NCBI GenBank assembly: GCA_021780395.1
Contig: JAJXYU010000202.1
Span: forward strand, 1-15,054
Direction of reading: 5' to 3'
Source of the DNA: Pseudomonadota bacterium
GTDB lineage: Bacteria; Pseudomonadota; Gammaproteobacteria; Steroidobacterales; Steroidobacteraceae
DNA length: 15,054 nt
Shown here piece by piece: positions 1,639 to 15,054 of this stretch. The notes beneath the pieces are model-generated. The model was given only the letters and a program-made list of their open reading frames with translations, was not told the origin of the DNA and did not search any database. The stretch's first letter is position 1, and each line of letters opens with the position of its first letter. The position numbers and the translations under genes were made by a program.

Positions 1639-1639
1639 C

Positions 1640-2542: not shown

Positions 2543-2922
2543 GCACGTTACCGAGCAAGACCCGGGTCCCGCACTACCGCTGGGACGATCTGCCCGCCGA
2601 GCCCTTGAAGGGGGGCATCACCCGCAAACTCATCAGCGGTGAACGCATGATGATCGCGCACGTCCATCTGAAGAAGGGTGACGAGGTGCCCCGCCACTCG
2701 CATCACAACGAGCAACTGACGTACATCCTGTCGGGCGCGCTGCACTTCTGGTTCGGACCGGAAGGCGACTCCGAGATCACGGTGCGCGCCGGCGAAGTGA
2801 TCGTGATCCCCTCGAACCTGCCCCACCGGGCGCTCGCGCTCGAGGACACGCTCGACGTGGACGTGTTCTCGCCGCCGCGCGAGGACTGGTTGACCGGCAC
2901 CGACGCGTATCTGCGGGGCTGA
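2539..2922 (+). CDS. Small cupin-domain protein
   Basis: This is a 127-residue single-domain cupin beta-barrel. The metal motif is visible as H53, H55 and E58 in PRHSHHNEQLTYILSG, and the second motif as VIPSNLPHRAL with H96, giving the usual three-His/one-Glu metal site. Its ATG overlaps the cyclase stop as ATGA, and its TGA directly abuts the next ATG. This argues for the start at 2539 rather than the longer upstream reading frame, whose N-terminal part is only the Arg-rich shadow of the cyclase. There is no signal peptide, so it is cytoplasmic. Small cupins of this type include isomerases, dioxygenases, lyases and non-catalytic sensors. In this operon an enzyme acting on the imported substrate is likely, but the reaction cannot be named. 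Confidence 0.88.
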   Translation: MSTLPSKTRVPHYRWDDLPAEPLKGGITRKLISGERMMIAHVHLKKGDEVPRHSHHNEQLTYILSGALHFWFGPEGDSEITVRAGEVIVIPSNLPHRALALEDTLDVDVFSPPREDWLTGTDAYLRG

Positions 2923-4002
2923 ATGCGCACCTACGACGTCGATCCGGGCATTGCCGCCGCGCTTCGGGGATTCACCCTGCCGGAGCGGCTCGGCTTCGGG
3001 CTCGTGAACGCACCGGTGATGTACAGCGCGACCTGGCGCGACGGCGTCTGGAGCCGGGGACAGCTCCTGCCGTACAGGCCGATCGAGCTATGGCCGGGGT
3101 CGCGCGCGCTGCAGTATGCCGAACTGGTGTTCGAGGGGCTCAAGGCGTACCGCGTCGGGCGGGAACGGCCGAACTTGTTCCGGCCCGGCGAGAACTGCCG
3201 CCGGCTGGCGCGCTCGGCCGTCCGGATGTCGATGCCCGTCGTGCCGGAATCCTTGTTCTTCGAGGGCATCGAGGCCGTGGCCGGCACGTGCAGCGACTTC
3301 ATTCCGTCGCAGTCCGGGCGGTCGCTCTATCTGCGCCCGTTCCTGTTCGGCACCGAGAACAGCTACCTGCTGAAGAACTCCTCCACGTTCCGCTTCATGG
3401 TGATCGCGAACCCGGTCGAATCGTACGCCTCCGGCGCGCTGAAGGTGACGATCGAGCGTGCCGACGTGCGCGCGGCGCCGGGTGGCATCGGCGAAGCCAA
3501 GGCGGCGGCGAACTACGCCGCCTCGCTGCGCGCCTCCACGGCGGCGGTGAACCGGGGCTGCACCGTGGCGCTGTGGCTCGATGCCGCGCACCATCGCGAC
3601 GTCCAGGAACTCTCCGGGATGAACGTGTTCGTGGTGATCGATGGCGAGCTGCACACGCCCGAGCTCGACGGCACGATCCTGCCCGGAGTCACCCGGGACT
3701 CGTTGATCCTGCTGGCGCGAAGCCTGGGCTACGCGGTTCACGAGCGGCGCATCGCGATCGACGAGATCATCGACGGGATCCGCAGCGGTGCGTGCACCGA
3801 GGTGTTCGCGTGCGGGACCGCGGCGATCGTGAGCCCGATCGAGTCGCTCTGGGAGAGCGACGGGCGGCATCATTCGCCACCGATCGTCGACGGGGTCGCG
3901 AAGCGCCTGCGCGAATCGCTGCTCGCGATTCAAGAGCGACGCGCGCCGGACCCCTTCGGATGGACGAAGGAGATCGCCTCCATCGAGGATCCAATTCCAT
4001 GA
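2923..4002 (+). CDS. Class IV PLP aminotransferase, branched-chain (IlvE/BCAT) type
   Basis: This 359-residue fold-type IV PLP enzyme resembles branched-chain amino acid aminotransferases, which exchange the amino group between Leu/Ile/Val (or related acids) and 2-oxoglutarate. Family blocks appear in order: VFEGLKAYR (69-77), LFRPGENCRRLARSAVRM (85-102), LRPFLFGTE (137-145), GGIGEAKAAANYAASL (187-202) with the Schiff-base lysine K193, QELSGMN (228-234) with the PLP-binding Glu229, TILPGVTRD (251-259), and EVFACGTAA (293-301). Length and motifs match the large bacterial/eukaryal BCAT subgroup. The ATG follows the cupin stop with no gap, and the stop overlaps the next ATG. In an operon with a TonB receptor, a cyclase and a cupin it may act on a dedicated substrate rather than serve housekeeping Leu/Ile/Val synthesis. 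That is inference, so the symbol ilvE is not assigned. Confidence 0.9.
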   Translation: MRTYDVDPGIAAALRGFTLPERLGFGLVNAPVMYSATWRDGVWSRGQLLPYRPIELWPGSRALQYAELVFEGLKAYRVGRERPNLFRPGENCRRLARSAVRMSMPVVPESLFFEGIEAVAGTCSDFIPSQSGRSLYLRPFLFGTENSYLLKNSSTFRFMVIANPVESYASGALKVTIERADVRAAPGGIGEAKAAANYAASLRASTAAVNRGCTVALWLDAAHHRDVQELSGMNVFVVIDGELHTPELDGTILPGVTRDSLILLARSLGYAVHERRIAIDEIIDGIRSGACTEVFACGTAAIVSPIESLWESDGRHHSPPIVDGVAKRLRESLLAIQERRAPDPFGWTKEIASIEDPIP

Positions 4003-4982
4003 CCGACACGACTCGAGCGATCGTGATCCACGAGGCCGGCGGACCGGAAAAACTCGTCTGGGAGTCCGTGCCGGTCGGCACGCCGGGACCCGGGGAGGTC
4101 TTGGTCCGCCATACCGCGATCGGCGTGAATTTCCACGATACCTACGTGCGCTCCGGGCTCTACCAGACGCTCCGGCTGCCGGGGATCCCGGGGATCGAAG
4201 CGGCCGGGGTCGTCGAACGACTCGGCGACGGCGTCACGGGACTCGCGATCGGCGACCGGATCACCTACATCGACGCGACCTACGGGGCGTACTCCGAGGC
4301 GCGCGTGCTGCCTGCGCGGCTCGCGGTGCGACTGCCGCCGGGCGTCGCCGACGACGTCGCGGCGAGCCTGACGATCAAGGGTTTCACCGCCTCGATGCTG
4401 CTGCGATCGGTGCATCGCGTGCACGCCGGGGAGACCGTGTTGATCCACGCGGCCGCGGGCGGCGTCGGCCAGCCGCTGGTCCGCTGGGCGAAGCATCTCG
4501 GCGCGACCGTGATCGCGACCGCGGGCTCGGCCGAGAAGCTCGCGATCGCGCGCGACTGCGGGGCGGATCAGCTGATCAATTATCGCGAGGAGAACTTCGT
4601 CGAGCGCGTCGCCCAACTGACCGGGGGCCGCGGCGTCGACGTCGCGTACGACTCGGTCGGCGCCGCGACGTTCCTGGGATCGCTCCAATGCCTCGCGTAC
4701 CAGGGACTGCTCGTGAACTTCGGCCAATCCTCGGGTCCGGTCGCGCCGTTCAGCCCGTCGCTGCTCGCGAACCGCTCGAACGGCGTGGTGCGTCCGATGG
4801 TGTTCCACTACATTCGCGAACGCGCCGCGCTCGACGCGATGGCCGCGGAGGTGTTCGGCGCGATCGAACGCGGCATCCTGCGCGCGCCGACGATCACGCG
4901 CATACCCCTGGCGCGCGCGGCGGAGGCGCACGCCCTGCTCGAGTCTCGGCGCTCCGCCGGACCGATCGTGCTCCTGCCCTGA
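3999..4982 (+). CDS. QorA-like NADPH:quinone oxidoreductase (zinc-free MDR family)
   Basis: This 327-residue medium-chain dehydrogenase/reductase is the length of E. coli QorA (about 327). The GroES-like N-terminal half carries the QOR signature NFHDTYVRSGLY (44-55); the nucleotide-binding half has the glycine-rich AAAGGVG (151-157), then KLAIARDCGAD and INYREENF. The zinc-ligand cysteines of alcohol dehydrogenases are absent. It should reduce quinones or alpha,beta-unsaturated carbonyls with NADPH in the cytoplasm. The start at 3999 overlaps the aminotransferase stop as ATGA and has GAGGA about 9 bases upstream; longer upstream readings in this frame are shadows. It is the last of five coupled genes, and a 51-base gap follows before the propeller gene. 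A role in reducing an enone intermediate is plausible but unproven. Confidence 0.92.
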   Translation: MTDTTRAIVIHEAGGPEKLVWESVPVGTPGPGEVLVRHTAIGVNFHDTYVRSGLYQTLRLPGIPGIEAAGVVERLGDGVTGLAIGDRITYIDATYGAYSEARVLPARLAVRLPPGVADDVAASLTIKGFTASMLLRSVHRVHAGETVLIHAAAGGVGQPLVRWAKHLGATVIATAGSAEKLAIARDCGADQLINYREENFVERVAQLTGGRGVDVAYDSVGAATFLGSLQCLAYQGLLVNFGQSSGPVAPFSPSLLANRSNGVVRPMVFHYIRERAALDAMAAEVFGAIERGILRAPTITRIPLARAAEAHALLESRRSAGPIVLLP

Positions 4983-5019
4983 GCCGACCCCGGCCCGGGC
5001 CCCTGCAACCGCCCCGATC

Positions 5020-5025
5020 GAGGAG
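5020..5025 (+). promoter_or_regulatory. Ribosome binding site for the SMP-30-like gene
   Basis: GAGGAG lies eight bases before the ATG at 5034 and fixes that start. The 51-base gap also holds a 10-base GC palindrome at 4992-5001. It has no T-tract and I do not call it a terminator, so read-through from the upstream operon is likely. Confidence 0.65.
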
Positions 5026-5033
5026 ATCGAATC

Positions 5034-5954
5034 ATGAAAGCCACCCGCAAGGTCGTTCTCGCCGCGTTCGCGCTGCTCTGCGCCGCATCGGTACGCGCGA
5101 CCGAAGTCACGGTCGTTCGCAACGTGCGGGGTCCCGAGGGTCCGCTGTACGTCGACGGCAACCTCTATTACGTCGGCTGGGTCTCGAACACGCTGTCACG
5201 ATGGAACGGGCACGAGAGCACCGTGCTGAACCATATCCCCGGCTGCAACCAAAACGGTCTCGCGCTCACGAAGCAGCACACCTTCCTGCTCGCGTGCACC
5301 GCCGAACGGGGCGCGATCCTCGAGGTCGACATGAACGGCAAGATCTTGCGGCGCTGGGACGCGGACGACAAGGGACGCAAGTTCATCGGCGGGATCAACG
5401 ACTTGATGGTCACCGCGAACGGCGGCGCGTACGCGACGGTGTTCGGCACGTACAAGGCCGTTCCCGCGGGCGTGACCGGCAAGATCCTCTATCTCGCGCC
5501 CGGCGCCCGGCAGTGGGTCCAGGTCGCGACCGACCTGGACTACGCGAACGGGATCGGCATATCGCCCGACCAGAAGACGCTCTACGTCGACGAAACCGTC
5601 GGCGACTGCATCCTGAAGTTCACCGTGAATCCCGACGGCACGCTCAGCCACCGCGCGAACTTCGCGCTGCTCTACGTCCTGGTGCCGAACAAGGTCAACG
5701 CCTGGTGGATCGGACCGGACAGCATGAAGGTCGGCCGGCACGGCAACCTGTACGTCGCCCAATGGATGGGCGGCAAGGTCCTGAAGATCTCCCCGGGCGG
5801 CAAGCTCCTGCATGTCTTCGACATCGCCGCGGGTGACGGCACCACGAATGTCGCGTTCGGGCCCGGCGAGAAGGACCTGTACGTGACGGTGGTGAAGGAT
5901 CCGAACGATCCGCTCGCGAGGGGCAGCATCGTGCGGATCCCGAACGTTCGCTGA
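5034..5954 (+). CDS. Exported SMP-30/gluconolactonase-like beta-propeller
   Basis: This 306-residue protein has a clear signal peptide (MKATRKVVLAAFALLCAASVRA, cleavage near residue 22), so it is periplasmic or secreted. The mature part is a six-bladed-propeller sequence of the SMP-30/gluconolaconase/LRE type: repeated blades ending in motifs such as GNLYYVGW, GKILYLAPG, KTLYVDETVG, GNLYVAQWMGGKVLKI and KDLYVTVV. Candidate divalent-metal ligands of the lactonase site are E35 (PEGP), N122 (GINDL), N172 (YANGIG) and D229 (GPDSM). These match the Glu/Asn/Asn/Asp pattern of the family, so lactone or ester hydrolysis is possible. It follows the five coupled genes on the same strand after 51 bases, with a strong RBS. 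The assignment of ligands is by eye. A non-catalytic binding role cannot be excluded. Confidence 0.85.
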   Translation: MKATRKVVLAAFALLCAASVRATEVTVVRNVRGPEGPLYVDGNLYYVGWVSNTLSRWNGHESTVLNHIPGCNQNGLALTKQHTFLLACTAERGAILEVDMNGKILRRWDADDKGRKFIGGINDLMVTANGGAYATVFGTYKAVPAGVTGKILYLAPGARQWVQVATDLDYANGIGISPDQKTLYVDETVGDCILKFTVNPDGTLSHRANFALLYVLVPNKVNAWWIGPDSMKVGRHGNLYVAQWMGGKVLKISPGGKLLHVFDIAAGDGTTNVAFGPGEKDLYVTVVKDPNDPLARGSIVRIPNVR

Positions 5955-5959
5955 AGCCC

Positions 5960-5965
5960 TATAAT
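5960..5965 (+). promoter_or_regulatory. Candidate sigma-70 -10 box before the YncE-like gene
   Basis: TATAAT is an exact -10 consensus, conspicuous in such GC-rich DNA, located six bases after the SMP-30 stop. No -35 match is seen 16-18 bases upstream and there is no extended TGn. If real, transcription would begin near 5972 and give a leader of about 43 bases before the ATG at 6015. The alternative ATG at 5964 falls inside this box. Confidence 0.4.
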
Positions 5966-6014
5966 GTCGCCGGCACGCCCGCAGGGGCACACGATCGGAC
6001 TCGGGAGCATCGCC

Positions 6015-7067
6015 ATGCGACAGCGCGGATGGGCAGGGACTCGGTTGGCGGTCGCGATCCTCGTCGTCGGCGGACTGTTGGCGGCGCAGGGCGCATCGAG
6101 TGCGGCGACGGGCGCGTCGAGCGGCGCGCCCGGTGCGCCGTCGCACATCGTCGCGATTCCCGGCGGCGCCCACGGGATCGGTTTCGATGACATGGGCTAC
6201 GTCCCCGAGCTCCACCGTATCGTCGTCCCGGCGGGACAGACCGGGGCGCTCGCGCTGATCGATCCGCAGTCGCTCGCCCTGACCCTGATTCCGGGAATCA
6301 GCACGCCGCGGCGCACCGCCCGGGGCCACGGTGAGGGCACGACCTCCGCCACATACGCCCACGGTTTCCTGTTCGCGAGCGACCGGGACACCCATCAGGT
6401 CGTGATCGTCGATCCGCGCGGACATGCGGTGCTCGGTCGCGTTCCGTTGAGCGGCGGTCCGGACTACCTTCGCTACGATCCGATCGCGCGCGAACTCTGG
6501 GTCACCGAGCCCGGCGCCCGGCAGATCGAGATCTTCGGCGTCGACTTCTCACCCCGTCCGACGTTGCGGCGCGTCGCGACGATCCCGGTCCCGGGCGGCC
6601 CCGAGTCGCTGATCATCGACGCCAAACGCGGGATCGCGTACACGAATCTCTGGAAACGCGACACGCTCGTGATCGGCGTGGCGGACCGACGCATCGAGGC
6701 GCGCTGGCCCGACGGATGCGAGGGGCCGCGCGGACTCGCGTGGGATGCGCAGTCGCGCTTCCTGTTCGTCGGTTGCGCCGAAGGAAAGGTCAGCGTGCTC
6801 GATGCCGGTCATGGAGGGCGGGTGCTCGGAACGGCCACGACCGGCCGCGGCGTCGACATCATCGCGTACGACGCGTCGCGGCACCGGGTGTATGCGCCCG
6901 GCGCGCGCAGCGCCACGATGACCACGCTGCACGTCGATCCGCAGGGGCACCCGACGCTCGAGGCGGTCCATCGCACCGCTCACGGCGCGCATTGCGTCGC
7001 CGTCGCCCCGACCGGACGGGCATTCGTGTGCGATCCGCGGCACGGGCGCGTATTGGTCTTCGATTGA
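6015..7067 (+). CDS. Exported YncE-like beta-propeller protein
   Basis: This 350-residue protein has an N-terminal signal (MRQRGWAGTRLAVAILVVGG, then an Ala/Gly/Ser-rich stretch to about residue 42) and should be exported. The body is a seven-bladed propeller of the YncE/NHL-lactonase kind, with recurring strand pairs such as GFLFASDRDTHQVVIVDP, RELWVTEPGARQIEIF, GIAYTNLWKRDTLVIGV, RFLFVGCAEGKVSVLDA and RAFVCDPRHGRVLVFD. No catalytic motif is recognised; these proteins usually bind ligands, partner proteins or DNA. I chose the ATG at 6015 because GGGAG lies about seven bases upstream and the signal peptide then starts at residue 1. The in-frame ATG at 5964 would add 17 residues in front of the signal and overlaps a candidate promoter. 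It lies on the same strand as the SMP-30-like gene, 60 bases downstream. Specific function unknown. Confidence 0.83.
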   Translation: MRQRGWAGTRLAVAILVVGGLLAAQGASSAATGASSGAPGAPSHIVAIPGGAHGIGFDDMGYVPELHRIVVPAGQTGALALIDPQSLALTLIPGISTPRRTARGHGEGTTSATYAHGFLFASDRDTHQVVIVDPRGHAVLGRVPLSGGPDYLRYDPIARELWVTEPGARQIEIFGVDFSPRPTLRRVATIPVPGGPESLIIDAKRGIAYTNLWKRDTLVIGVADRRIEARWPDGCEGPRGLAWDAQSRFLFVGCAEGKVSVLDAGHGGRVLGTATTGRGVDIIAYDASRHRVYAPGARSATMTTLHVDPQGHPTLEAVHRTAHGAHCVAVAPTGRAFVCDPRHGRVLVFD

Positions 7068-7095
7068 GCCCGACCCCGATCGGCGCGAGCCGTCG

Positions 7096-7875
7096 ATGAA
7101 CGAAGCGCTTCTCAGGGCCGGCACCTTCACGGGGCTCGTCGCGATCCTCGCGATCGCCGAGTGGCGCTGGCCGCGGAACCCGGCGGCCCCCGATCGCCGC
7201 CGTCGCTGGCCGGTGAACTTCGTGCTCGGCGCGGCCAACGTCGTCGCGGTCCGCCTGCTGATGCCCTGGGTCGCGGTCGATGCGGCGCGCTGGAGCGCGA
7301 TGCATCACACGGGCCTTTTGCAATTCCTGGGCGCTTCACCGGCGCTCGGCGCGGCGTGCGGCTTCGTGGTCCTGGATCTCGCCGTCTATGCGCAGCACCT
7401 GGTGTCGCACCGAGTTCCGGTGTTGTGGCGGCTCCACCGGCTGCACCATACCGATCTCGCGCTCGACGTGAGTTCAGCGGTGCGGTTCCACCCGCTCGAG
7501 ATCCTGCTCTCGATGGCGTTCAAGATCGGCGTCGTGCTGCTGCTCGGCGTCTCTCTGCCCGCCGTGATCGCGTTCGAAACCGCATTGAGCGCGTTCGCGC
7601 TGTTCACCCATGCGAACCTCGCGTTCCCCGTCGCGGTGGACGACGCGTTGCGCGCACTGTTCGTCACCCCGGACATGCACAAGATCCACCATTCGGTGGA
7701 ACGTACCGAGCACGACCGCAATTTCGGCTTCCAGTTCTCCGTCTGGGACCGCCTGTTCGGCACGTACCTCGCGCGCGCTTCACAGCCGCCCGCGCGGATC
7801 CGGCTCGGACTGCGCGAGTTCCGTTCGCCGGCCGAGCAACGCTTGCCGGCGCTGCTGATCCAACCCCTGCGCTGA
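7096..7875 (+). CDS. Fatty-acid hydroxylase / sterol-desaturase family membrane di-iron enzyme
   Basis: This 259-residue integral-membrane protein belongs to the fatty acid hydroxylase superfamily (PF04116), which uses a di-iron centre and O2 to hydroxylate or desaturate lipids. The histidine boxes are all visible: HLVSH (101-105), HRLHH (114-118), H132 in VRFHP, H172 in FTHANLAFP, HKIHH (195-199) and H206. Hydrophobic spans near residues 7-21, 42-60, 84-100 and 142-170 fit four membrane segments. The gene starts 28 bases after the YncE-like gene and precedes a phospholipid-type transferase, so it may modify a membrane lipid. Possible substrates include fatty acyl chains, hopanoids, sterol-like lipids and carotenoids, and the sequence does not decide. 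No convincing RBS is seen. ATG 7096 is the first start that gives the full N-terminal helix. Confidence 0.9.
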   Translation: MNEALLRAGTFTGLVAILAIAEWRWPRNPAAPDRRRRWPVNFVLGAANVVAVRLLMPWVAVDAARWSAMHHTGLLQFLGASPALGAACGFVVLDLAVYAQHLVSHRVPVLWRLHRLHHTDLALDVSSAVRFHPLEILLSMAFKIGVVLLLGVSLPAVIAFETALSAFALFTHANLAFPVAVDDALRALFVTPDMHKIHHSVERTEHDRNFGFQFSVWDRLFGTYLARASQPPARIRLGLREFRSPAEQRLPALLIQPLR

Positions 7876-7930
7876 ACCCGGACGGCCCCGGCAACCCCGC
7901 AGACCTCGATCCCACGGAGACCGCCGTCAG

Positions 7931-8515
7931 ATGCTCGACAGCCAGGCGCGCCGTTTCGTCGAACCGATGTTCCGTCATGCCGCGCTCGCGCTGCGACGAC
8001 TGGGGGTCTCCGCGAACGCGGTCTCGTCGACCGCGCTGCTGGTCGGGCTCGGCGCCGCGGCCGGTGTCGCACGCGGCCACCCCGGTGTGGCGATCGTCCT
8101 GCTGTGGGTCTCGGGCACGCTCGACGCGGTCGACGGCACGCTCGCGCGCCTGACCGCGAGCACGCCGATCGGTGCGATCCTCGACATCACCTTCGATCGG
8201 GTCGTCGAGACCACGGTGATCGCGGCGCTCGCGTGGCGGCACCCCGCGCTGCGGTTCGAACTGCTGCTGCTCGTGGGCGCGATCGCGATCGCGATGTCCC
8301 TGTTCCTGTCGATCGCGGCCGCGGTGCTCAACCGGTCGGTGAAATCGTTCCATTACGCGCCCGGTCTCGGCGAACGCACCGAGGCGTTCCTGTGTCTCAC
8401 CGCGATGATCGCGGATCAGCGCCGGCTCGCATGGTGGACCGCGCTGTTCATCGCGGTGATCGTGATCACGATGGCACAGCGCCTGCGCCACGCCGTCCGA
8501 CTGCTCGCCCGGTGA
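7931..8515 (+). CDS. ynjF: CDP-alcohol phosphatidyltransferase, YnjF-like
   Basis: This 194-residue membrane enzyme is of the CDP-alcohol phosphotransferase family (PF01066), which joins a CDP-activated lipid or alcohol to an acceptor alcohol. The signature is present at residues 65-89: D65, D68, G69, A72-R73, G81, D85 and D89. The spacing between R73 and G81 is seven residues, whereas eight or nine is usual. Hydrophobic spans near 33-48, 52-64, 92-102, 108-132 and 168-181 agree with a six-helix enzyme. GGAG lies about 11 bases before the ATG. It is 55 bases behind the hydroxylase gene on the plus strand and converges with the ynjD-like gene. I use ynjF because E. coli YnjF has the same family and size and lies beside ynjBCD; identity at gene level is inference, and its lipid product is unknown. 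Confidence 0.87.
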   Translation: MLDSQARRFVEPMFRHAALALRRLGVSANAVSSTALLVGLGAAAGVARGHPGVAIVLLWVSGTLDAVDGTLARLTASTPIGAILDITFDRVVETTVIAALAWRHPALRFELLLLVGAIAIAMSLFLSIAAAVLNRSVKSFHYAPGLGERTEAFLCLTAMIADQRRLAWWTALFIAVIVITMAQRLRHAVRLLAR

Positions 8516-8530
8516 GCGCCCGGCGTCCCG

Positions 8531-8544
8531 GCGTCCGCGGACGC
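8531..8544. terminator. Palindrome between convergent genes, possible bidirectional terminator
   Basis: GCGTCCGCGGACGC is a perfect 14-base palindrome (5-bp stem, 4-base loop) lying in the 31-base gap between two convergent stop codons. It is preceded by a tandem CGGCGTCC repeat (8521-8536). There is no T-tract on either side, so intrinsic termination would be weak. The position is the main support. Confidence 0.35.
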
Positions 8545-8546
8545 GG

Positions 8547-9305
8547 TCAGTCCGGCCCCGACGCGTCGGCCGCGGCACTCCAGAACGCGACCTCCGCGGC
8601 GACCCCGTTGGCGGGATCGGCGCAAAACGCGGGACGGTCCTCATAGAGCCGGCAGCCGCCGTCGCGGATCGCCGCGAACTGGTCGCCGACACGCAGGCAT
8701 TCCTTGAGATCGTGCGTGACGAAGATCGCGGTGATCCCCCGGCTTCGGGCGACCTGCCGGAACAGCGCCTGCATCGCGAGACGGGTCGCCGGATCGAGGC
8801 TCGCGAACGGCTCGTCGAGCAGCAGGACCGCGGGCTCCACCGCGAGCGCACGACCGAATGCGACCCGCTGGCGCTCGCCGCCGGAGAGCGTCAACGGATC
8901 GCGCCGCTCGAGGCCCTGCAGGCCGAGCGCCTCGATCAGGGGATCGACCATCGCGGCGACCCGGGCGGCGTCGCGGGAGCGAAGCCGCAGGCCGAACGCG
9001 AGGTTCGCGCGCACGTCGAGGTGCGGGAAGAGCAGCGGCTCCTGGTTGAGGTAGACGATGCCACGGCGATGCGCCGGCAGCCGGTCGACCCGCCGGCGGT
9101 CGACTTCGATGCATCCCGCCGCGGCGTCGCCGAGCCCCGCGAGCACGCGCAACAGGCTCGTCTTGCCGCTGCCGGACGCTCCGATCACCGCGAGGGTCGA
9201 GCGGTGGCCGACCGTGAATTCGACGTCGCGCAGGATCGTCCGACCGCCGAGCCTCACCGCGAGGCCGGTCACGCGCAATCCCTGGGGTGACACAGGGCCC
9301 GTCAT
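8547..9305 (-). CDS. ynjD: ABC transporter ATP-binding protein, YnjD-like
   Basis: This 252-residue ATPase powers an import-type ABC transporter. All motifs are intact: Walker A GASGSGKT (42-49), Q-loop Gln88 in LNQEPLLFPHL, signature LSGGERQ (140-146), Walker B VLLLDEP (160-166) with D164 and catalytic E165, D-loop SLD, and H-loop His198 in VTHD. After about residue 215 it has a short tail, without the TOBE-type regulatory domain of Pot/Mal ATPases, as expected for the YnjD/ThiQ type (about 217-235 residues). The ATG is one base past the stop of the preceding permease gene, so it is coupled. It is the last gene of the minus-strand operon. The symbol rests on family type plus neighbours (YnjB-like protein upstream, YnjF-like enzyme adjacent). 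The substrate is unknown. Confidence 0.9.
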   Translation of the reverse strand: MTGPVSPQGLRVTGLAVRLGGRTILRDVEFTVGHRSTLAVIGASGSGKTSLLRVLAGLGDAAAGCIEVDRRRVDRLPAHRRGIVYLNQEPLLFPHLDVRANLAFGLRLRSRDAARVAAMVDPLIEALGLQGLERRDPLTLSGGERQRVAFGRALAVEPAVLLLDEPFASLDPATRLAMQALFRQVARSRGITAIFVTHDLKECLRVGDQFAAIRDGGCRLYEDRPAFCADPANGVAAEVAFWSAAADASGPD

Positions 9306-9306
9306 C

Positions 9307-10080
9307 TCAAAGGTCCCATTCGCCCGCGAATGTTGGAGGTCGCCGTTGCGCCCGCACGGCCAGCGCGATCACCGGTGGCAGCAACAGGATCAACCCGCTC
9401 GCGGCGGCCAGGCGCAGATCGCCGGCGAGCAGGAATTGGTACAGACTCGTGGTCAAGGTCGCCACGCGTCCTTCGCCGATCAGCAGCACCAGCGCGTAAT
9501 CGAACCACGAGATCAGAAAGGTCTGCACCAGGCACAGGACCACCAGCGGTCGAGCGATCGGCAGGAGCACGCGGATCCACGCTTGTCGGGGCGTGGCGCC
9601 GAGCGTCGCCGCGCCGTCCAGATAGGCTCGGGTTCGCGCGTTCCACAGCCCGCAGAACAGGATCACCGCATACGCGTACGCGAGAATGCCTTGCGCGAGC
9701 GCGACACCGACCATGTGTCCCGCGAGTCCCGCGCGCAGGAACGAGTACTCGAGGCCGACCCCGAGCACCACCGGTGACAACGCGAACGGCAGGTGCAACA
9801 GCCAGCGGAGCGCCACGCCGGACCGCGCCTCGACGGCGCTGCGGCTCGTGACGAAGCCGAGGCTGGTCGCGACGAGCGCAACCGCGCCCGCGATGCCGAG
9901 CGAACGCAGCGCGGCCGCGCCCAGCCCTCCGGTCGCGGCGAGACCGGTCCAGGCCGATGCCTGCCAACGCTCCGGCAGCGGCGCGGGCCAAGGCCACCGC
10001 CAGGCGAACGACCAGCCGAGCAGCAACGCCACCGGCGCGAGAAATGCCGCCCAGAGGGCGATGCCCGCCGCCCGGCGCAT
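9307..10080 (-). CDS. ABC transporter permease, second subunit (equivalent to YnjC C-half)
   Basis: This 257-residue inner-membrane permease of the binding-protein-dependent transport family has about six hydrophobic spans (near 8-24, 60-76, 92-110, 122-144, 174-200 and 226-243). The EAA loop that docks on the ATPase is seen at 155-162 as DGAATLGA, followed by W168 and LLPIARP (172-178). The Glu of the EAA motif is replaced by Asp155 and Gly156 occupies the first Ala position. Its ATG overlaps the stop of the first permease gene (ATGA), which selects this start over a longer Arg-rich upstream reading. It should pair with the upstream permease as a heterodimer. E. coli YnjC carries both halves in one chain of about 511 residues, so the gene here is split. 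No gene symbol is given for that reason. Confidence 0.88.
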   Translation of the reverse strand: MRRAAGIALWAAFLAPVALLLGWSFAWRWPWPAPLPERWQASAWTGLAATGGLGAAALRSLGIAGAVALVATSLGFVTSRSAVEARSGVALRWLLHLPFALSPVVLGVGLEYSFLRAGLAGHMVGVALAQGILAYAYAVILFCGLWNARTRAYLDGAATLGATPRQAWIRVLLPIARPLVVLCLVQTFLISWFDYALVLLIGEGRVATLTTSLYQFLLAGDLRLAAASGLILLLPPVIALAVRAQRRPPTFAGEWDL

Positions 10081-10988
10081 CAGGCGCCCTCCGATCGGGC
10101 CGCGCGGGGGCGCGCCCGCAGCACGATGGCCGAGCACGCCGCGACCACGAGGGTGTAGAGCAACGCGACCGCGTAGGCCTGCGGGCGGGTCGACAGGTCG
10201 AATTGACCGAACAGTTGCACGACCCGGATCGACAGCATCGTCGGGTAGGATGCGCCGACGAGCAGCGGAATCTCGAACGCGCCGCTGAGCGCGAGAAAGT
10301 AGACGCCGAGCGTCGGCGCCGCCGCTCGCAGCACCAGGGGCGTCCCGACGCGCCGCCACGCACCGACTGGTGACGCGCCGAGCGTCCGGGCGGCCTCGAC
10401 GAGCTCCCCGACCCGGTGCAGCCGCGCCAGTCGGCCGAACAACACGACCAGGAACGGCAGCACCAAGGCGGTCTGGGTGACGATGATCCCGAGGCCGTCG
10501 CGCGAGTAGAGCGGCGATGGAAACTCGGCCGGCCGACGGATCCAGCCGAGCGCGTAGGCCCAGCGCGCGAGTTCACCCGCGTTGCCGAGCCAGAGCACCG
10601 CGGTCAGACCCGCGACCATCGGCGGCACCGCGATCGGCAGGAACCACGGCGTGACGCCCACGGCCTCGCCCGCCATCGCTGCGGCCGGGCGCAAAGCGAG
10701 CACGAGCAGCGCGCCGACGATCGACGCGCCGAGACTCGCGGCGCCGACCCAGAGGGAGAATCCCAGGCTGATCCAGGTCACGCGATCGCGGAGCACCGCG
10801 GCCCATGCCGTGAAACTCAGGCCGTGGGCGAGCAGTCCCGCAAGCCCGAGGCTGTAGGCGGCCATGAACGAGACGCCGAGGAGCATTGGACCCCCGACGA
10901 GCGCCCAGACCACCACGGCGCTGGTGCTCCCGGCACGACCGCCGCGCCCGCGGCGCAGCCATCGCGGGCCCTCAGTGCTCGAGCACAT
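10080..10988 (-). CDS. ynjC: ABC transporter permease, first subunit (equivalent to YnjC N-half)
   Basis: This 302-residue inner-membrane permease has hydrophobic spans near 22-46, 72-98, 113-134, 166-184, 222-242 and 275-292. The EAA loop is canonical, EAARTLGA (198-205), followed by AWRRVGTPLV. It should form the translocation pore together with the second permease and be driven by the YnjD-like ATPase. The chosen ATG lies 17 bases inside the end of the binding-protein gene. The first 20 residues are basic and uninformative, so a later start is possible; no good RBS decides it. The stop overlaps the next ATG. The call as YnjC N-terminal half depends on gene order and on the YnjB-like neighbour. 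Confidence 0.87.
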   Translation of the reverse strand: MCSSTEGPRWLRRGRGGRAGSTSAVVVWALVGGPMLLGVSFMAAYSLGLAGLLAHGLSFTAWAAVLRDRVTWISLGFSLWVGAASLGASIVGALLVLALRPAAAMAGEAVGVTPWFLPIAVPPMVAGLTAVLWLGNAGELARWAYALGWIRRPAEFPSPLYSRDGLGIIVTQTALVLPFLVVLFGRLARLHRVGELVEAARTLGASPVGAWRRVGTPLVLRAAAPTLGVYFLALSGAFEIPLLVGASYPTMLSIRVVQLFGQFDLSTRPQAYAVALLYTLVVAACSAIVLRARPRAARSEGA

Positions 10989-12234
10989 CGCGGCGGAAGT
11001 CCCTCGACAACGCGATCATCAGCGACGCGGAGGGCTCAGGTCGCGCGAACGCCTGCAGCGCGGCTCGCGACGGCGCGTGCGTGCGCCGCGCGGCCGCGGC
11101 GAACCGTGCCCGCCACCGCGGCGGCAGCCGTCCGACGTCGAGCACGGTGCCGTCACCCCAGACCGCGGGGTCGAGCTTGCGCCATTGCGCCCACGGCGAG
11201 ATCAGCTCGTTGATCACCACCATCGCCGCGGCAACGTGGGCCGAGCGGGCGACGATTCCAAGGTAGTGACTGTTCTGGATCATTCCGCTACGCAGAGAGA
11301 ACCCCTCCGCCGTCGGCGGGAAAGCGCCCGTCGCGACCCGGTGATCGACCTCGCCGTCGGTGAAGCTCATCGTGAAATCGACTTCGCCATCGGCAAACAG
11401 CTGGTCGAGCTGCGCGGTGCTCCGCGGAAACGTCGCGCCATGCCGCCACAGGTCCGGGCGCACCGACCGGATCCATGCGAACACCGCATCCCGCAGGCGA
11501 AGGTAGCGCGCCTCGTCGAACGGACCCTGTAATTGTGCCGGATTCGCCGCGAACGCGTACATCAGCGACTTCAGGAAACTGAGGCCGGTGAAGCTCGTGT
11601 CGAACGTGAACCGGCCGGGATGGCGATGGATCCACGCGGCGAGGCTCGCCGGGTCCGTCGGCGGCCGCGGCACCCGCCGCGAGTCGGTGATCATCAGCAA
11701 CTGCGCATTGCCCCAGGGGCACTCGTAACCCGCGATCGGTTGCTGGAAATCCCGCGAGATATAGGGGTTGCGCCAGTCGATGAAGCGCGCGTTCGGCAGG
11801 CGCGCGGTGAACGGTCCGAACAGCGCATGGATCTCGCGCAGCTGGTAGAACGTTTCGCCGTTGATCCACACGATGTCGTACCCGCTCGGGCGCCGGTGCG
11901 CCTCGATCTCGGTCATCAGCGCACTGACGATCTGCTCGCCCTGGGCCGGGACGAAGCGCAATCGGATGTCGCGCGAACGTTGCAGCGCCGGCGCGATCAC
12001 GCGCTGCAGGTAGGCATTCACCGCCGGATCCCCGCGCCACATCGCGATCGTCACGGTCTGGCCGCGGGCGGCCGCGACGATGCCCGCCCAGGACGCGGGC
12101 AACGGCGGCGACGGTGCGTTCACCGGGCGCGTGCGCGTGCAAGCGCCGAGCGTCGCGCACGCGAGGATCGCCGCGGCGATCGCGACGCCGCGCGCGCGCC
12201 GCGGCGGGCGCCGGATCAAGCGCGCCGCCGCCAT
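10972..12234 (-). CDS. ynjB: YnjB-like ABC substrate-binding lipoprotein
   Basis: This 420-residue extracytoplasmic binding protein has a basic N-terminus, a hydrophobic stretch at 17-29 and a lipobox LGAC at 29-32, so it is probably a lipoprotein anchored through Cys32. The mature start resembles E. coli YnjB: ASWAGIVAAARGQTVTIAMW, GDPAVNAYLQ, YDIVWINGETFYQLRE, LPNARFIDW and ECPWGNAQL. These blocks, with the neighbouring permeases and ATPase, support ynjB. The ATG at 12234 puts the signal at residue 1 and overlaps the upstream fusion gene by 19 bases. A longer reading from a GTG at 12405 would only add a shadow of the fusion gene. The ligand of the YnjB family is not established as far as I know; conserved Trp/Asn/Glu in the pocket region cannot be interpreted by eye. 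Confidence 0.85.
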   Translation of the reverse strand: MAAARLIRRPPRRARGVAIAAAILACATLGACTRTRPVNAPSPPLPASWAGIVAAARGQTVTIAMWRGDPAVNAYLQRVIAPALQRSRDIRLRFVPAQGEQIVSALMTEIEAHRRPSGYDIVWINGETFYQLREIHALFGPFTARLPNARFIDWRNPYISRDFQQPIAGYECPWGNAQLLMITDSRRVPRPPTDPASLAAWIHRHPGRFTFDTSFTGLSFLKSLMYAFAANPAQLQGPFDEARYLRLRDAVFAWIRSVRPDLWRHGATFPRSTAQLDQLFADGEVDFTMSFTDGEVDHRVATGAFPPTAEGFSLRSGMIQNSHYLGIVARSAHVAAAMVVINELISPWAQWRKLDPAVWGDGTVLDVGRLPPRWRARFAAAARRTHAPSRAALQAFARPEPSASLMIALSRDFRRDVLEH

Positions 12235-14360
12235 GCGTGATAACGCTGCATCATGCGCAGGACCCGCTCGGGCGCGTGAGCCTTGCGCCAGACACCGGCG
12301 GCGTACTTGTTCGCCTCCGACCAGGTCGGGTATGGGTGGATCGTCCGCAGGATCCGGCCGAGCCCGAGTCCCTCGCGCATCGCGAGCGTGAATTCGGCGA
12401 GCCACTCGCCGGCCCCCCGTCCGACGATGGTCACGCCGAGTATCCGGTCCTTGCCGGGCACGGTCAGCACGCGGACGAAGCCGGTCGCCTGTCGTTCCGC
12501 GATCGCCCGGTCGAGGTCCGCCAGATCGTACACGGTGAGCTCGTAGGGGACACCCGCCTGCCGTGCGCTCGCCTCGTTGTGGCCGACCCGGGCCACCTCC
12601 GGATCGACGAAGGTCACCGCGGGCATCACCGCATAGTCCACCCGGAAACGTCGCACGCCGCCGAACAGCGCATTCACCGCCGCATACCAGGCTTGATGAG
12701 CCGCCGCGTGCGTGAATTGATGAGGCCCGGCGACGTCGCCGCAGGCGTAGATGTTCGGATGCAAGGTGGCGAGGTACTCATCGGTCTCGATCGTCGGCGC
12801 CGAGGTGATCCCGAGGGCCTCGAGACCGAATCCGCTCGTGCGAGGCCGCCGGCCGAGCGCGATCAACAACTGATCGTACGGCAGGCGCACCTCTCCGCCC
12901 GGCCCCGCCACCACGAGCGCCCGGCCCGTGGCGCTGCGCTCGATCCGGACCGGCCGACTGCCGGTGCGCACGTCGACCCCGTCGGCCTCGAGCCGGGCAC
13001 GGACGAAGTCCCCGACCACCGGATCCTCGCGGCTGAGCACGTGGGTTCCCCGCTGCAGCAGCGTGACGCGAGACCCGAGGCGGGCGAACGCCTGGGCGAG
13101 TTCGCAACCGACCGGACCCGCGCCCAGCACGACGAGTCGTGGCGGCAGGGACTGCAGCGACCAGAGCGACTCCGACGTGAGGTAATCGTCGGGCCCGAGA
13201 CCCGGCAGATCCGGCACGACCGGTTCGGCGCCGGTCGCGACGATGATCGCGCGGGTCGTGATCATCTGCCCGTCGACCTCGACGACCCACGGCGACCGGA
13301 TCGTCGCACGACCGCGGCGGACGTCGACGCCGAGTTCGCGGTAGCGTTCGACCGAGTCGTGCGGCGCGACCTGCGAAATCGCCTCGTGCACGCCGCTCAT
13401 CACCGCTCGAAAATCGACCCGCGGGTCCCCGCAGTCGACCCCGGCCGCCGCTCCCGCCCGCGCGGTCGCGACGACCCGTGCGGCGTGAATCAGCGCCTTC
13501 GAGGGAACGCAGCCGGTGTTCAGGCAATCCCCGCCCATGCGCCGCCCTTCGATCAACGTGACCTTCGCGCGCACCGCCGCGGCGATGTACGCGCTCACCA
13601 GCCCGGCCGAACCCGCACCGATCACGACCAGATTGCGGTCGAACCGCTTCGGGCGCGGCCACGGTCCCTGCGACCGGCGCGCCTTCAGGCGGCCGGCGAG
13701 ATGACGAGCGACCCACGGGAAGACGCCGAGCAACGCGAGCGATCCGGCCACGGCGGGCGAGACGATCCCGTGGAGTCCGTCGAGACTCGCGAGCCGGGTA
13801 CCGGCGTTCACGTAGAGCAGGGTTGCGGGGAACATCCCCACCTGGCTCACCCAATAAAACGTGCCGGGGGCCATCGTGGTCAGGCCCATCGCGAGGTTCA
13901 CCGCGAAGAACGGGATCACCGGCACCATCCGCAGGCCGAACAGGTACACCCCACCTTCCCGCGCGAGCCCCCGATCGATCGCCTGCAAGTGCGCTCCGAA
14001 TCGCCGAGCGGCGGCGTCTCGAAACACATGCCGTGCGGCCAGGAACGCGAGCAGCGCCCCGAGACTCGACGCAAAGGACACGATCACGGTGCCTTCGAGG
14101 ACACCGAACACCGCGCCGGCGAGCAGCGTCAACGCCGTCGCGATCGGCAGCGACGCCGCCGCGGCAAGCACGTAGGCGGCGAAGAAGCCGAGCGCCAGCA
14201 GGACCGGGTGCGCGGCCTGCAGTCCACCGAGGGTGCGCAAATGCGAACGGACCTCGCCGAGCGCGCCGGAGCCGTGCAAGCCGATGCGCATGGACACGAG
14301 CAGCGCGCCGACAATGATCGCCAGCAGAAGCACTTTGCCGAACGTGGACTTCGAGATCAT
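12216..14360 (-). CDS. TVP38/TMEM64 membrane domain fused to a FAD-dependent disulfide oxidoreductase
   Basis: This is a two-domain protein of 714 residues. Residues about 5-225 are a TVP38/TMEM64 (VTT, DedA-like) membrane domain, with GAVFGVLEG, SLGALLAFLAAR and PFFAVNLAMGLT; relatives act in lipid scrambling or transport across membranes. Residues about 243-714 are a cytoplasmic pyridine nucleotide-disulfide oxidoreductase: FAD site GAGSAG (248-253), redox pair in GGDCLNTGC (Cys279, Cys284), NAD(P)H site GAGPVG (413-418), second FAD motif YACGDVAGP, and the dimer-interface His675/Glu682 in HPYPTWSE. It lacks the metal-binding N-domain and the C-terminal Cys-Cys of mercuric reductase, so I do not call it merA. 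ATG 14360 is preferred; TTG 14372 would add four residues. It is first in the ynj-like operon, overlapping ynjB by 19 bases. Such fusions are known, but the substrate is not. Confidence 0.9.
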   Translation of the reverse strand: MISKSTFGKVLLLAIIVGALLVSMRIGLHGSGALGEVRSHLRTLGGLQAAHPVLLALGFFAAYVLAAAASLPIATALTLLAGAVFGVLEGTVIVSFASSLGALLAFLAARHVFRDAAARRFGAHLQAIDRGLAREGGVYLFGLRMVPVIPFFAVNLAMGLTTMAPGTFYWVSQVGMFPATLLYVNAGTRLASLDGLHGIVSPAVAGSLALLGVFPWVARHLAGRLKARRSQGPWPRPKRFDRNLVVIGAGSAGLVSAYIAAAVRAKVTLIEGRRMGGDCLNTGCVPSKALIHAARVVATARAGAAAGVDCGDPRVDFRAVMSGVHEAISQVAPHDSVERYRELGVDVRRGRATIRSPWVVEVDGQMITTRAIIVATGAEPVVPDLPGLGPDDYLTSESLWSLQSLPPRLVVLGAGPVGCELAQAFARLGSRVTLLQRGTHVLSREDPVVGDFVRARLEADGVDVRTGSRPVRIERSATGRALVVAGPGGEVRLPYDQLLIALGRRPRTSGFGLEALGITSAPTIETDEYLATLHPNIYACGDVAGPHQFTHAAAHQAWYAAVNALFGGVRRFRVDYAVMPAVTFVDPEVARVGHNEASARQAGVPYELTVYDLADLDRAIAERQATGFVRVLTVPGKDRILGVTIVGRGAGEWLAEFTLAMREGLGLGRILRTIHPYPTWSEANKYAAGVWRKAHAPERVLRMMQRYHAWRRRA

Positions 14361-14406
14361 CGGTGGTTCCAATCCCGCCCGTGGACGCGCCGCGAACCAC
14401 GGCTGC

Positions 14407-14744: not shown

Positions 14745-15054
14745 TCAGAAGTCGACCGCGATCGTCCCGAAGAACGCAGCCGGCTCTTCGTAGATCGCCC
14801 GCACGAACGGCGTCCCCGCGTAGGTCGTGTCGCCGTAACCGAACGTGTAGTAATGCCGGTTCAACACGTTGTCGACGTGCAACGCGAGCTTCAGATCCTT
14901 GAGCATGCCCCAATGCAGCGGCAAGGTGTCGCGAACGGTGAAGTTCATCACCGCGTAACTCGGGATCGTCTCCGCGCCCGGGATCCCCGCGTTGTATTCA
15001 TAGACGTACTGCGATCCGGCATAGTGTTCGCTGAGATCGGCGCGCCAGGTCCGC
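14745..15054 (-). CDS. TonB-dependent receptor, C-terminal end (5' part outside window)
   Basis: The last 102 residues of a second TonB-dependent receptor are encoded here; the frame is open to the window edge. The pattern is typical of the final barrel strands: AVMNFTVRDTLPL, LKLALHVDNVLNRHYYTFGY (the conserved V-D/E-N-L-x-x-x-x-Y block), YAGTPFVRAIYEEP, and a last strand FFGTIAVDF ending in the terminal Phe needed for barrel insertion. It is outer-membrane and imports an unknown ligand. It differs in sequence from the receptor at the left edge, which has a three-residue extension after its last Phe. Downstream lie the inverted repeat and the hydrolase remnant, so the receptor may once have been in one transcript with that hydrolase. 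Confidence 0.9.
   Translation of the reverse strand, partial: RTWRADLSEHYAGSQYVYEYNAGIPGAETIPSYAVMNFTVRDTLPLHWGMLKDLKLALHVDNVLNRHYYTFGYGDTTYAGTPFVRAIYEEPAAFFGTIAVDF

What the first reader, a model, noticed from the sequence alone, without database searches (positions are those of the whole stretch)
7931..14360. A rearranged ydjX-ynjBCD-ynjF-like module joining transport, thiol redox and lipid enzymes
In E. coli (recalled) ydjX, ydjY and ydjZ precede ynjA, B, C, D, E and F. YdjX and YdjZ are TVP38/TMEM64 proteins, YnjBCD an ABC importer, YnjF a CDP-alcohol phosphatidyltransferase, and YdjY, YnjA and YnjE redox or sulfur-related proteins. Here one locus has a TVP38 domain fused to a disulfide oxidoreductase, then ynjB, a split ynjC and ynjD, with a YnjF-like enzyme adjacent but inverted. 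Persistence of the combination despite fusion, splitting and inversion argues for one functional system. Hypothesis: the importer supplies an alcohol or thiol head group or redox substrate, the phosphatidyltransferase attaches it to lipid, and the TVP38 domain moves the lipid or couples redox to the membrane. The function and substrate are not known to me.
Basis: partly seen in the sequence, partly recalled or inferred. Interest (0 to 1): 0.78.

Follow-up and report, generated by a model that had tools for sequence, protein, structure and literature searches.

The report
Importer coupled to lipid head-group enzyme
A small-molecule importer and a lipid-building enzyme, both of unknown function even in E. 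coli, travel together across very different bacteria, and in one bacterial family the importer is replaced by a nucleoside-type transporter, which suggests that cells fetch a ribose-containing compound from outside and attach it to a membrane lipid.

Summary
The genes are real: a TVP38/VTT–FAD-oxidoreductase fusion, YnjB, two permeases, YnjD, and a convergent YnjF-type CDP-alcohol phosphatidyltransferase (CDPT). The "inversion" is not one: E. coli ynjF is convergent too. Association is far beyond chance: a CDPT lies within 6 kb of ynjB in 35 of 51 genomes against 0.5 expected, VTT in 22 of 51 against 0.8. The core is importer plus CDPT: a clearly separated YnjF subfamily occurs in 49 of 51 ynjB genomes and 11 of 347 others, with 14 of the 49 unlinked. 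VTT/redox is frequent but optional: 37 of 58 fusions are in ynjB-free genomes. In one family lacking ynjB, a NupC-type nucleoside transporter stands directly upstream of the CDPT in 24 of 27 CDPT genomes; these keep all three ribose contacts but have lost most nucleobase contacts. Best reading: import of a riboside-like alcohol that the CDPT attaches to lipid. Coupling is strongly supported; substrate and lipid are inferred.

The parts
12216..14372 (-). TVP38/VTT membrane domain (residues 78-192) fused to a MerA-like FAD pyridine-nucleotide oxidoreductase (residues 247-691), 718 aa; CLNTGC at 283-288, HPYPTWSE at 679-686
   Evidence: PF09335 73.8 bits, PF07992 205.8, PF02852 90.9; NF004991 482 bits below cut-off 620, MerA 368 below 454; motifs
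10972..12234 (-). YnjB-type periplasmic substrate-binding protein, 420 aa, with the WINGETF form of the family motif; lipoprotein-like N-terminus (by eye)
   Evidence: NF008633 367 bits, cut-off 203; AlphaFold2 mean pLDDT 92.7
10080..10988 (-). permease subunit 1 (first half of YnjC), 302 aa
   Evidence: PF00528 22.0 bits, under the cut-off 26.4; best NCBIfam match is a 2-aminoethylphosphonate permease, far below cut-off
9307..10080 (-). permease subunit 2 (second half of YnjC), 257 aa
   Evidence: PF00528 25.5 bits against 26.4; searches used a wrong frame for this gene
8547..9305 (-). YnjD-type ABC ATPase, 252 aa
   Evidence: PF00005 103 bits; none of the 25 NCBIfam matches shown (of 187) is over its cut-off
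7931..8515 (+). YnjF-type CDP-alcohol phosphatidyltransferase, 194 aa, convergent with ynjD
   Evidence: PF01066 35.1 bits; D65 D68 G69 A72 R73 G81 D85 D89 invariant in 17 of 17 aligned relatives; the gene at the same place in G001 scores 239 bits against the family profile
7096..7875 (+). fatty-acid hydroxylase family protein (PF04116), possible accessory member; also beside the CDPT in 5 of 6 f18 loci and in f36, farther off in f32 and some f61 loci (3.6 kb in L229)
   Evidence: PF04116 96 bits; neighbourhoods
14745..15053 (-). C-terminal end of what reads like a TonB-dependent receptor, cut by the window edge; TonB receptors stand upstream of the fusion in 6 of 6 f18 loci and L112, and just before ynjB in f32
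   Evidence: by eye only: no Pfam match for the 102-aa piece; receptors in L080 and L112 by Pfam, in the others by profile

Best explanation
The core is a coupled pair: the YnjBCD ABC importer brings in a small hydroxylated solute, most likely a riboside-like compound whose aglycone is not a standard nucleobase, and the YnjF-type CDP-alcohol phosphatidyltransferase transfers a phosphatidyl group from CDP-diacylglycerol to it (or to a product of it), making an unusual membrane phospholipid. The TVP38/VTT domain and its redox partner (MerA-like FAD enzyme here; 4Fe-4S YdjY or dicluster-like proteins in other lineages) act on the substrate or the lipid at the membrane, for example reducing the imported group or moving the lipid. 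Shown by computation: identity of the parts, near-obligate co-occurrence of importer and CDPT in the phylum sample, frequent linkage to VTT/redox genes, replacement of the importer by a CNT transporter with an intact ribose site. Inferred: that the imported solute is the CDPT acceptor, that it is a riboside, the lipid product, and the roles of VTT and FAD.
For: YnjF-type CDPT in 49 of 51 ynjB genomes and 11 of 347 others; scores bimodal, at or above 178 or at or below 83 bits. Relatives sample: 5 of 5 ynjB genomes and 0 of 55 others have a strong CDPT. Within families, among genomes visible in the truncated tables, 30 of 31 against 7 of 45. Linkage 35 of 51 against 0.53 expected. CDPT and VTT linkage go together on the YnjB tree (about 6.6 independent pairs same way, 0 opposite, median p 0.016). 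Importer slot taken by a CNT nucleoside-type transporter, matched regions 2-29 bp apart (49 bp in one), upstream and same strand, in 24 of 27 f61 CDPT genomes, 15 of 16 genera, with ynjB absent genome-wide in 27 of 27. In those CNTs the ribose contacts Glu332, Asn368, Ser371 are conserved in 24 of 24, while base contact Gln154 is lost in 24 of 24, Thr155 is Val in 24 of 24 and Phe366 is Val in 18 of 24; Glu156, a water-mediated base contact, is kept in 24 of 24 (residue roles from passages of PMC4139061). Other nucleoside hints: a gene annotated nucleoside hydrolase about 80 bp before ynjB in Peptoclostridium, an 8-oxoguanine deaminase gene after the CDPT in G072. In E. coli ydjXYZ-ynjABCD is listed as an operon directly activated by FNR (PMC3688515, passages).
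Against: No direct substrate evidence. The YnjB model matches sugar, glycerophosphocholine, sulfoquinovose, polyamine, iron and phosphonate binders with close scores. No known riboswitch near ynjB in 13 relatives' loci plus the window. 14 of 49 CDPTs are unlinked; 13 of 51 phylum-sample and 21 of 60 named ynjB loci have neither VTT, FAD enzyme nor CDPT within 6 kb, among them 14 of 15 alphaproteobacterial named loci. Two ynjB genomes (G146, G340) have no YnjF-type CDPT. The nearest solved or modelled CDPT relatives use inositol phosphate, not nucleosides. Six CDPT genomes of f71 have neither ynjB nor the fusion, and no CNT near the CDPT was found with the NupC query. The three f61 genomes of genus g238 have no CNT beside the CDPT (two have one 6.7 kb away). 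The nucleoside-hydrolase match is weak (81 bits against 450). A CNT next to a CDPT need not carry the same solute as YnjBCD. No such lipid turned up in the paper listings.
Confidence: 0.42

Rival explanations
1. Arsenosugar- or metalloid-related pathway: the system imports and reduces an organo-metalloid riboside (arsenosugar-like) and fixes it as a phospholipid, or detoxifies it; arsenosugar phospholipids are known natural products (recalled).
For: Genes that NCBI names arsenosugar-biosynthesis glycosyltransferases stand between ynjD and the VTT-FAD fusion in L085, L086, L090 and L197 (TIGR04282 over cut-off in L085; TIGR04283 in L197); TIGR04282 is in 7 of 55 ynjB genomes and within about 10 kb of ynjB in 5 of these 7; a fused TIGR04283-TIGR04282 gene stands with CDPT, VTT-FAD and DUF547 in L211; MerA-like active site; arsenosugars are ribofuranosides (recalled), which fits the CNT ribose site.
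Against: ArsS radical-SAM enzyme (TIGR04167) in 0 of 55 ynjB genomes; TIGR04282 in only 7 of 55; vcCNT binds 5'-deoxyuridine very poorly (PMC4139061), and arsenosugars lack the 5'-hydroxyl (recalled); too specialised for an FNR-activated E. coli operon.
Confidence: 0.1
2. Phosphonolipid or other head-group uptake: the importer is a divergent 2-aminoethylphosphonate-type system and the CDPT makes a phosphonolipid or related lipid.
For: YnjC and YnjD are nearest (below cut-off) to 2-aminoethylphosphonate, molybdate/tungstate and sulfate permeases and ATPases; Foldseek top hit STM0429 (recalled as PhnS).
Against: All far below curated cut-offs; no invariant Arg, Lys or His in the 14-sequence YnjB alignment, odd for an anion site (but Lys353 is invariant in the 55-sequence alignment); the CNT replacement does not fit a phosphonate.
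Confidence: 0.08
3. No shared substrate: importer and CDPT are both envelope-maintenance functions kept together by co-regulation or horizontal transfer as one island.
For: DedA-family proteins are linked to lipid-carrier recycling (PMC10127716, start of abstract in listings and passages); the window's ynjB type differs from that of the same-genus genome G005, so the block seems to move horizontally.
Against: 14 genomes keep both genes unlinked, which co-transfer does not explain; one transporter type is swapped for another in the same slot.
Confidence: 0.2
4. Nucleoside recycling: the CDPT makes an ordinary lipid and releases CMP, and the transporters recycle nucleosides.
For: CNT beside CDPT; in E. 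coli ynjF is next to nudG.
Against: The CNT base site is not that of the solved uridine carrier.
Confidence: 0.07
5. Chance neighbours of unrelated genes.
For: Each family is common in bacteria.
Against: 35 of 51 against 0.53 and 22 of 51 against 0.79 expected; 49 of 51 co-occurrence.
Confidence: 0.01

Closest known systems
E. coli K-12 ydjXYZ-ynjABCDE / ynjF
   Same: YnjB family, YnjC/D, two VTT proteins, convergent ynjF; ydjXYZ-ynjABCD listed as directly activated by FNR (PMC3688515, passages)
   Different: VTT not fused to FAD; redox partner is YdjY (annotated 4Fe-4S); YnjC is one long gene; YnjA and YnjE not seen in the window; function unknown there too
COG0398 DedA proteins fused to pyridine-nucleotide oxidoreductase
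   Same: Same fusion, described as the commonest domain fusion of that subfamily (PMC10127716, passage)
   Different: The passages seen do not link it to an importer or a CDPT
Phosphatidylinositol-phosphate / archaetidylinositol-phosphate synthases
   Same: CDP-alcohol phosphotransferase family and catalytic Asp motif; nearest solved structures by sequence and nearest NCBIfam models
   Different: Scores 72 and 44 bits against cut-offs 180 and 170; consensus GLxERTE near the end
Choline uptake plus phosphatidylcholine synthase (recalled)
   Same: Imported alcohol attached to lipid by a CDP-alcohol phosphatidyltransferase
   Different: Other transporter families; not tested here
Concentrative nucleoside transporters (vcCNT, nwCNT, hCNT3)
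   Same: Two module CNTs aligned with solved structures over nearly full length; all 24 keep the ribose contacts
   Different: Nucleobase contacts Gln154 and Thr155, and Phe366 in 18 of 24, are replaced

Membership tests
YnjB family (NF008633) | profile score over curated cut-off | tested here: met
   367 against 203 bits
TVP38/DedA (PF09335) | VTT domain over gathering score | tested here: met
   73.8 against 33.9 bits
Binding-protein-dependent ABC permease (PF00528) | profile score over gathering score | tested here: not met
   22.0 and 25.5 against 26.4 bits; E. coli YnjC scores 30.7, so the window genes are divergent rather than foreign
CDP-alcohol phosphatidyltransferase (PF01066) | score and complete D..DG..AR...G...D...D motif | tested here: met
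   35.1 against 22 bits; motif at residues 65-89
Phosphatidylinositol- or archaetidylinositol-phosphate synthase | NCBIfam equivalog cut-off | tested here: not met
   44 against 170 and 72 against 180 bits
Mercuric reductase MerA | TIGR02053 cut-off; C-terminal vicinal Cys (recalled) | tested here: not met
   368 against 454 bits; last residues HAWRRRA hold no Cys; but MerA-like Tyr in the dyad position
Glutathione / lipoamide disulfide reductases | catalytic His of the His-Glu dyad | tested here: not met
   Tyr in its place, HPYPTWSE, against HPHPTLSE in the aligned lipoamide dehydrogenase; Tyr in 54 of 55 FAD enzymes of the loci, His in one lying 5.7 kb from ynjB (L065); the Glu position is Glu in 34 of 55
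2-aminoethylphosphonate transporter PhnSTUV | equivalog cut-offs of PhnT and the permease | tested here: not met
   177 against 499 and 33 against 247 bits
Arsenosugar biosynthesis locus | ArsS (TIGR04167) in the genome | tested here: not met
   0 of 55 ynjB genomes
Nucleoside-importer identity of YnjBCD | ligand binding by YnjB | not testable with these tools
   fold search gives many ligand classes with close scores
CNT nucleoside transporters (for the f61 replacement gene) | PF07662 and ribose-contact residues | tested here: met
   212 and 203 bits in the two scanned; Glu332, Asn368, Ser371 in 24 of 24; but NCBIfam nupC 272 against 442

The most novel reading that the evidence does not exclude
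Bacteria of several phyla, E. coli included, import a non-canonical riboside and attach it to CDP-diacylglycerol with a dedicated phosphatidyltransferase, making a riboside phospholipid that has not been described, with a VTT-redox unit acting on it at the membrane. The importer can be an ABC system (YnjBCD) or a CNT carrier whose base site has been rebuilt.
Probability: 0.27. Interest if true: 0.93.

Novelty: new variant of a known kind. Interest (0 to 1): 0.72.

Why it matters
ydjXYZ-ynjABCD and ynjF are uncharacterised genes of the best-studied bacterium, and the operon is FNR-activated. The data reduce the module to a testable core (importer plus CDPT), say which parts are accessory, and give a substrate class to try first. 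If right, this reveals a widespread membrane lipid and a function for two orphan protein families and for some TVP38 proteins.

Tried and rejected
Inversion: rejected, E. coli has the same convergent order. Chance: rejected. Arsenosugar locus: ArsS 0 of 55, kept only as a rival. Riboswitch as substrate clue: 14 sources scanned at gathering scores (window, 12 named loci, plasmid locus L120); only T-boxes, tRNAs and one sRNA, none directly upstream of ynjB (nearest a T-box about 4 kb upstream in L159). Structure as substrate clue: many ligand classes close together. PDB sequence relatives of YnjB: none with the single sequence, two weak with a profile. Fusions of module genes other than VTT-FAD: none among the 13 profiles compared in the loci. 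Neighbours of the 14 unlinked CDPTs and of the six f71 CDPTs without ynjB: no shared head-group hint, though only a few were annotated; GCV_T-like genes beside two of the latter. Papers, listed rows only (several lists were capped): ynjB/C/D, ydjX/Z/ynjF, arsenosugar and TVP38, TIGR04282/3, TVP38 with CDPT, DedA with selenite, ynjA/E/F and ydjY, arsenosugar lipids, nucleolipid with CDPT, TVP38 with NupC: no description of this module seen. Error of mine: permease 2 was first translated in a wrong frame (and one seed row of the Perm2 profile); corrected; the profile served only as a label. Limits: all 17 rows of profile A3 come from ynjB loci, so it may favour that subfamily; in the phylum searches only the 8 best first-look candidates per genome were scored for A3 and 2 for the fusion. 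In one search, 20 of the 80 named loci were dropped for short flanks, and those 80 are the ones most like the window's YnjB. The within-family count uses only genomes shown in truncated tables, counted by hand. L211's CDPT was missed by my own labels but found. Distances are between matched regions, not gene ends.
Full report
On the minus strand the window carries a 718-aa VTT-FAD fusion (12216-14372), ynjB (10972-12234), two permease genes (10080-10988 and 9307-10080) and a ynjD-type ATPase (8547-9305); on the plus strand, convergent, a CDP-alcohol phosphatidyltransferase (CDPT, 7931-8515) and a fatty-acid-hydroxylase family gene (7096-7875). YnjB is over its family cut-off (367 against 203 bits). 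The E. coli K-12 record confirms the recalled order and shows that ynjF is convergent with ynjBCDE there too, so the window has the same layout, not an inverted one.

Chance is excluded. In an even sample of 398 genomes of the phylum, 51 have ynjB over cut-off. In these 51, a CDPT lies within 6 kb of ynjB in 35 and a VTT gene in 22, against 0.53 and 0.79 expected from genome-wide counts and genome sizes. In 60 named loci with enough flank (of 80 fetched, the ones most like the window's YnjB), CDPT is near in 36, VTT in 36, both in 33, and none of VTT, FAD enzyme or CDPT in 21; Bacillota 25 of 28 with CDPT, Actinomycetota 6 of 7, Spirochaetota 2 of 2, Alphaproteobacteria 1 of 15. Twenty-four labelled gene orders occur. 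On a tree of 130 YnjB proteins the CDPT label changes at least 16 times and the VTT label 15; in independent pairs they go the same way in about 6.6 and the opposite way in none (median p 0.016).

The strongest result is co-occurrence. A profile of 17 YnjF-type CDPTs splits genomes cleanly: matches listed at E 1e-15 or better score 178 bits or more, or 83 or less. Strong matches are in 60 of 398 genomes: 49 of the 51 with ynjB and 11 of the 347 without. In 14 of the 49 the two genes are unlinked, so linkage alone does not drive this. Among 60 relatives of the window's genome, the 5 with ynjB over cut-off are the 5 with a strong CDPT; 18 of the other 55 are of the same genus. Among genomes visible in the tables, within families that hold both kinds, 30 of 31 ynjB genomes and 7 of 45 others have the CDPT.

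VTT-FAD is accessory. Strong fusions are in 58 of 398 genomes, 21 of them with ynjB (Fisher 4e-7), with a VTT gene near ynjB in 16 of these 21; 37 are in genomes without ynjB. Five of the 11 CDPT genomes without ynjB have the CDPT within 6 kb of a fusion. In other lineages the redox partner beside VTT differs: YdjY (E. coli, L134, L140), or proteins nearest to NF045663, below its cut-off (L146, L193). The FAD enzymes of the loci keep the CxxxxC pair (55 of 55); where lipoamide and glutathione reductases have His, 54 of 55 have Tyr, as MerA does, and one (L065) has His; the neighbouring Glu is kept in 34 of 55. This speaks for a MerA-like electrophile reductase rather than a thiol-disulfide reductase.

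The substrate clue comes from genomes that have the CDPT but not ynjB. In family f61, 27 of 199 genomes have the YnjF-type CDPT; ynjB is absent from all 27 genome-wide. In 24 of the 27, from 15 of 16 genera, a CNT (NupC-type) transporter gene lies upstream of the CDPT on the same strand, the matched regions 2-29 bp apart (49 bp in one), usually with the VTT-FAD fusion farther upstream (VTT within 6 kb in 23 of 27). Two of these CNTs were aligned with solved nucleoside transporters over nearly their whole length. Taking residue roles from passages of PMC4139061, the three ribose contacts Glu332, Asn368 and Ser371 are conserved in 24 of 24; the base contact Gln154 is Val in 23 and Pro in 1, Thr155 is Val in 24, Glu156 is kept in 24, and Phe366, which stacks on base and ribose, is Val in 18 and Phe in 6. 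Two CNTs 6.7 kb from the CDPT in the same family keep Gln154. So the replacement carrier should bind a riboside with an unusual aglycone. Weaker hints: a gene annotated nucleoside hydrolase before ynjB in Peptoclostridium (weak NCBIfam scores) and an 8-oxoguanine deaminase gene after the CDPT in G072.

Mechanism, with its steps marked. Shown: part identities, coupling of importer and CDPT, transporter replacement. Inferred: the imported riboside-like alcohol is the acceptor of the CDPT; the product is a phospholipid; VTT-FAD acts on substrate or lipid. The YnjB model (mean pLDDT 92.7) has the fold of binding proteins for sugars, glycerophosphocholine, sulfoquinovose, polyamines, iron and others, with close scores; the 14-sequence alignment has no invariant Lys, Arg or His but invariant Trp, Asn, Asp and Glu, which fits a neutral or cationic polar ligand better than an anion, though Lys353 is invariant in the 55-sequence alignment.

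What is known. PMC3688515 lists ydjXYZ-ynjABCD among operons directly activated by FNR, and ynjE separately (passages); PMC7660256 lists a PdhR-bound site upstream of ydjX (passage). PMC10127716 reports the VTT-oxidoreductase fusion (passage). None of my ten paper searches listed a description of the module or of the importer-CDPT coupling; the library holds only open-licence papers and some lists were capped. The system is therefore best called a new variant of a known kind (imported head group plus CDP-alcohol phosphatidyltransferase, as recalled for choline), with a substrate and product that remain to be found.

Noticed in passing
L117 (NZ_MH760469.1, IncC plasmid) 4677-10066: A copy of VTT-FAD, a TIGR03169-type oxidoreductase and ynjB, followed by a hypothetical gene (permease-like by profile) and then IS26, beside a drug-resistance island; described only.
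   Followed up: no
L085, L086, L090, L197: Loci grouping with Vreelandella, without a CDPT near ynjB, have instead an APH/choline-kinase-like gene before ynjB and TIGR04283- and TIGR04282-like genes between ynjD and VTT-FAD. The genomes of L085, L086 and L090 still have a YnjF-type CDPT elsewhere; that of L197 was not checked.
   Followed up: partly
L115/window against L112: Two distant YnjB types occur in one genus (G001, G007, G020 against G005), both with CDPT and VTT-FAD, pointing to repeated horizontal acquisition.
   Followed up: partly
L080:8311-9219, L081:6165-7013: A DUF547 protein sits between VTT-FAD and ynjB in f18, f36 and L112, beside VTT-FAD in f32, and also near ynjB in Spirochaetota L170 and L200.
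   Followed up: no
L069, L073, L114, L117: An MbnB/DUF692-type gene lies near the module in four loci; L117 also has DUF2282 and DoxX genes.
   Followed up: no
L228, L233, L245, L248: A YnjA-like (AhpD/CMD) gene follows the CDPT closely in f61 loci without ynjB (weak profile scores, 24-31 bits; order drawn for three of the four), echoing E. coli ynjA.
   Followed up: no
window 1-7067: Upstream genes on the plus strand: TonB receptor (5' end cut), putative cyclase, cupin-like, class IV aminotransferase, quinone-oxidoreductase-like, SMP-30-like and YncE-like proteins (some by eye); no link to the module looked for beyond the neighbour counts.
   Followed up: no
G007:C8:23075-25225: The same-genus VTT-FAD match is reported with one TGA inside the matched stretch or frame.
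   Followed up: no
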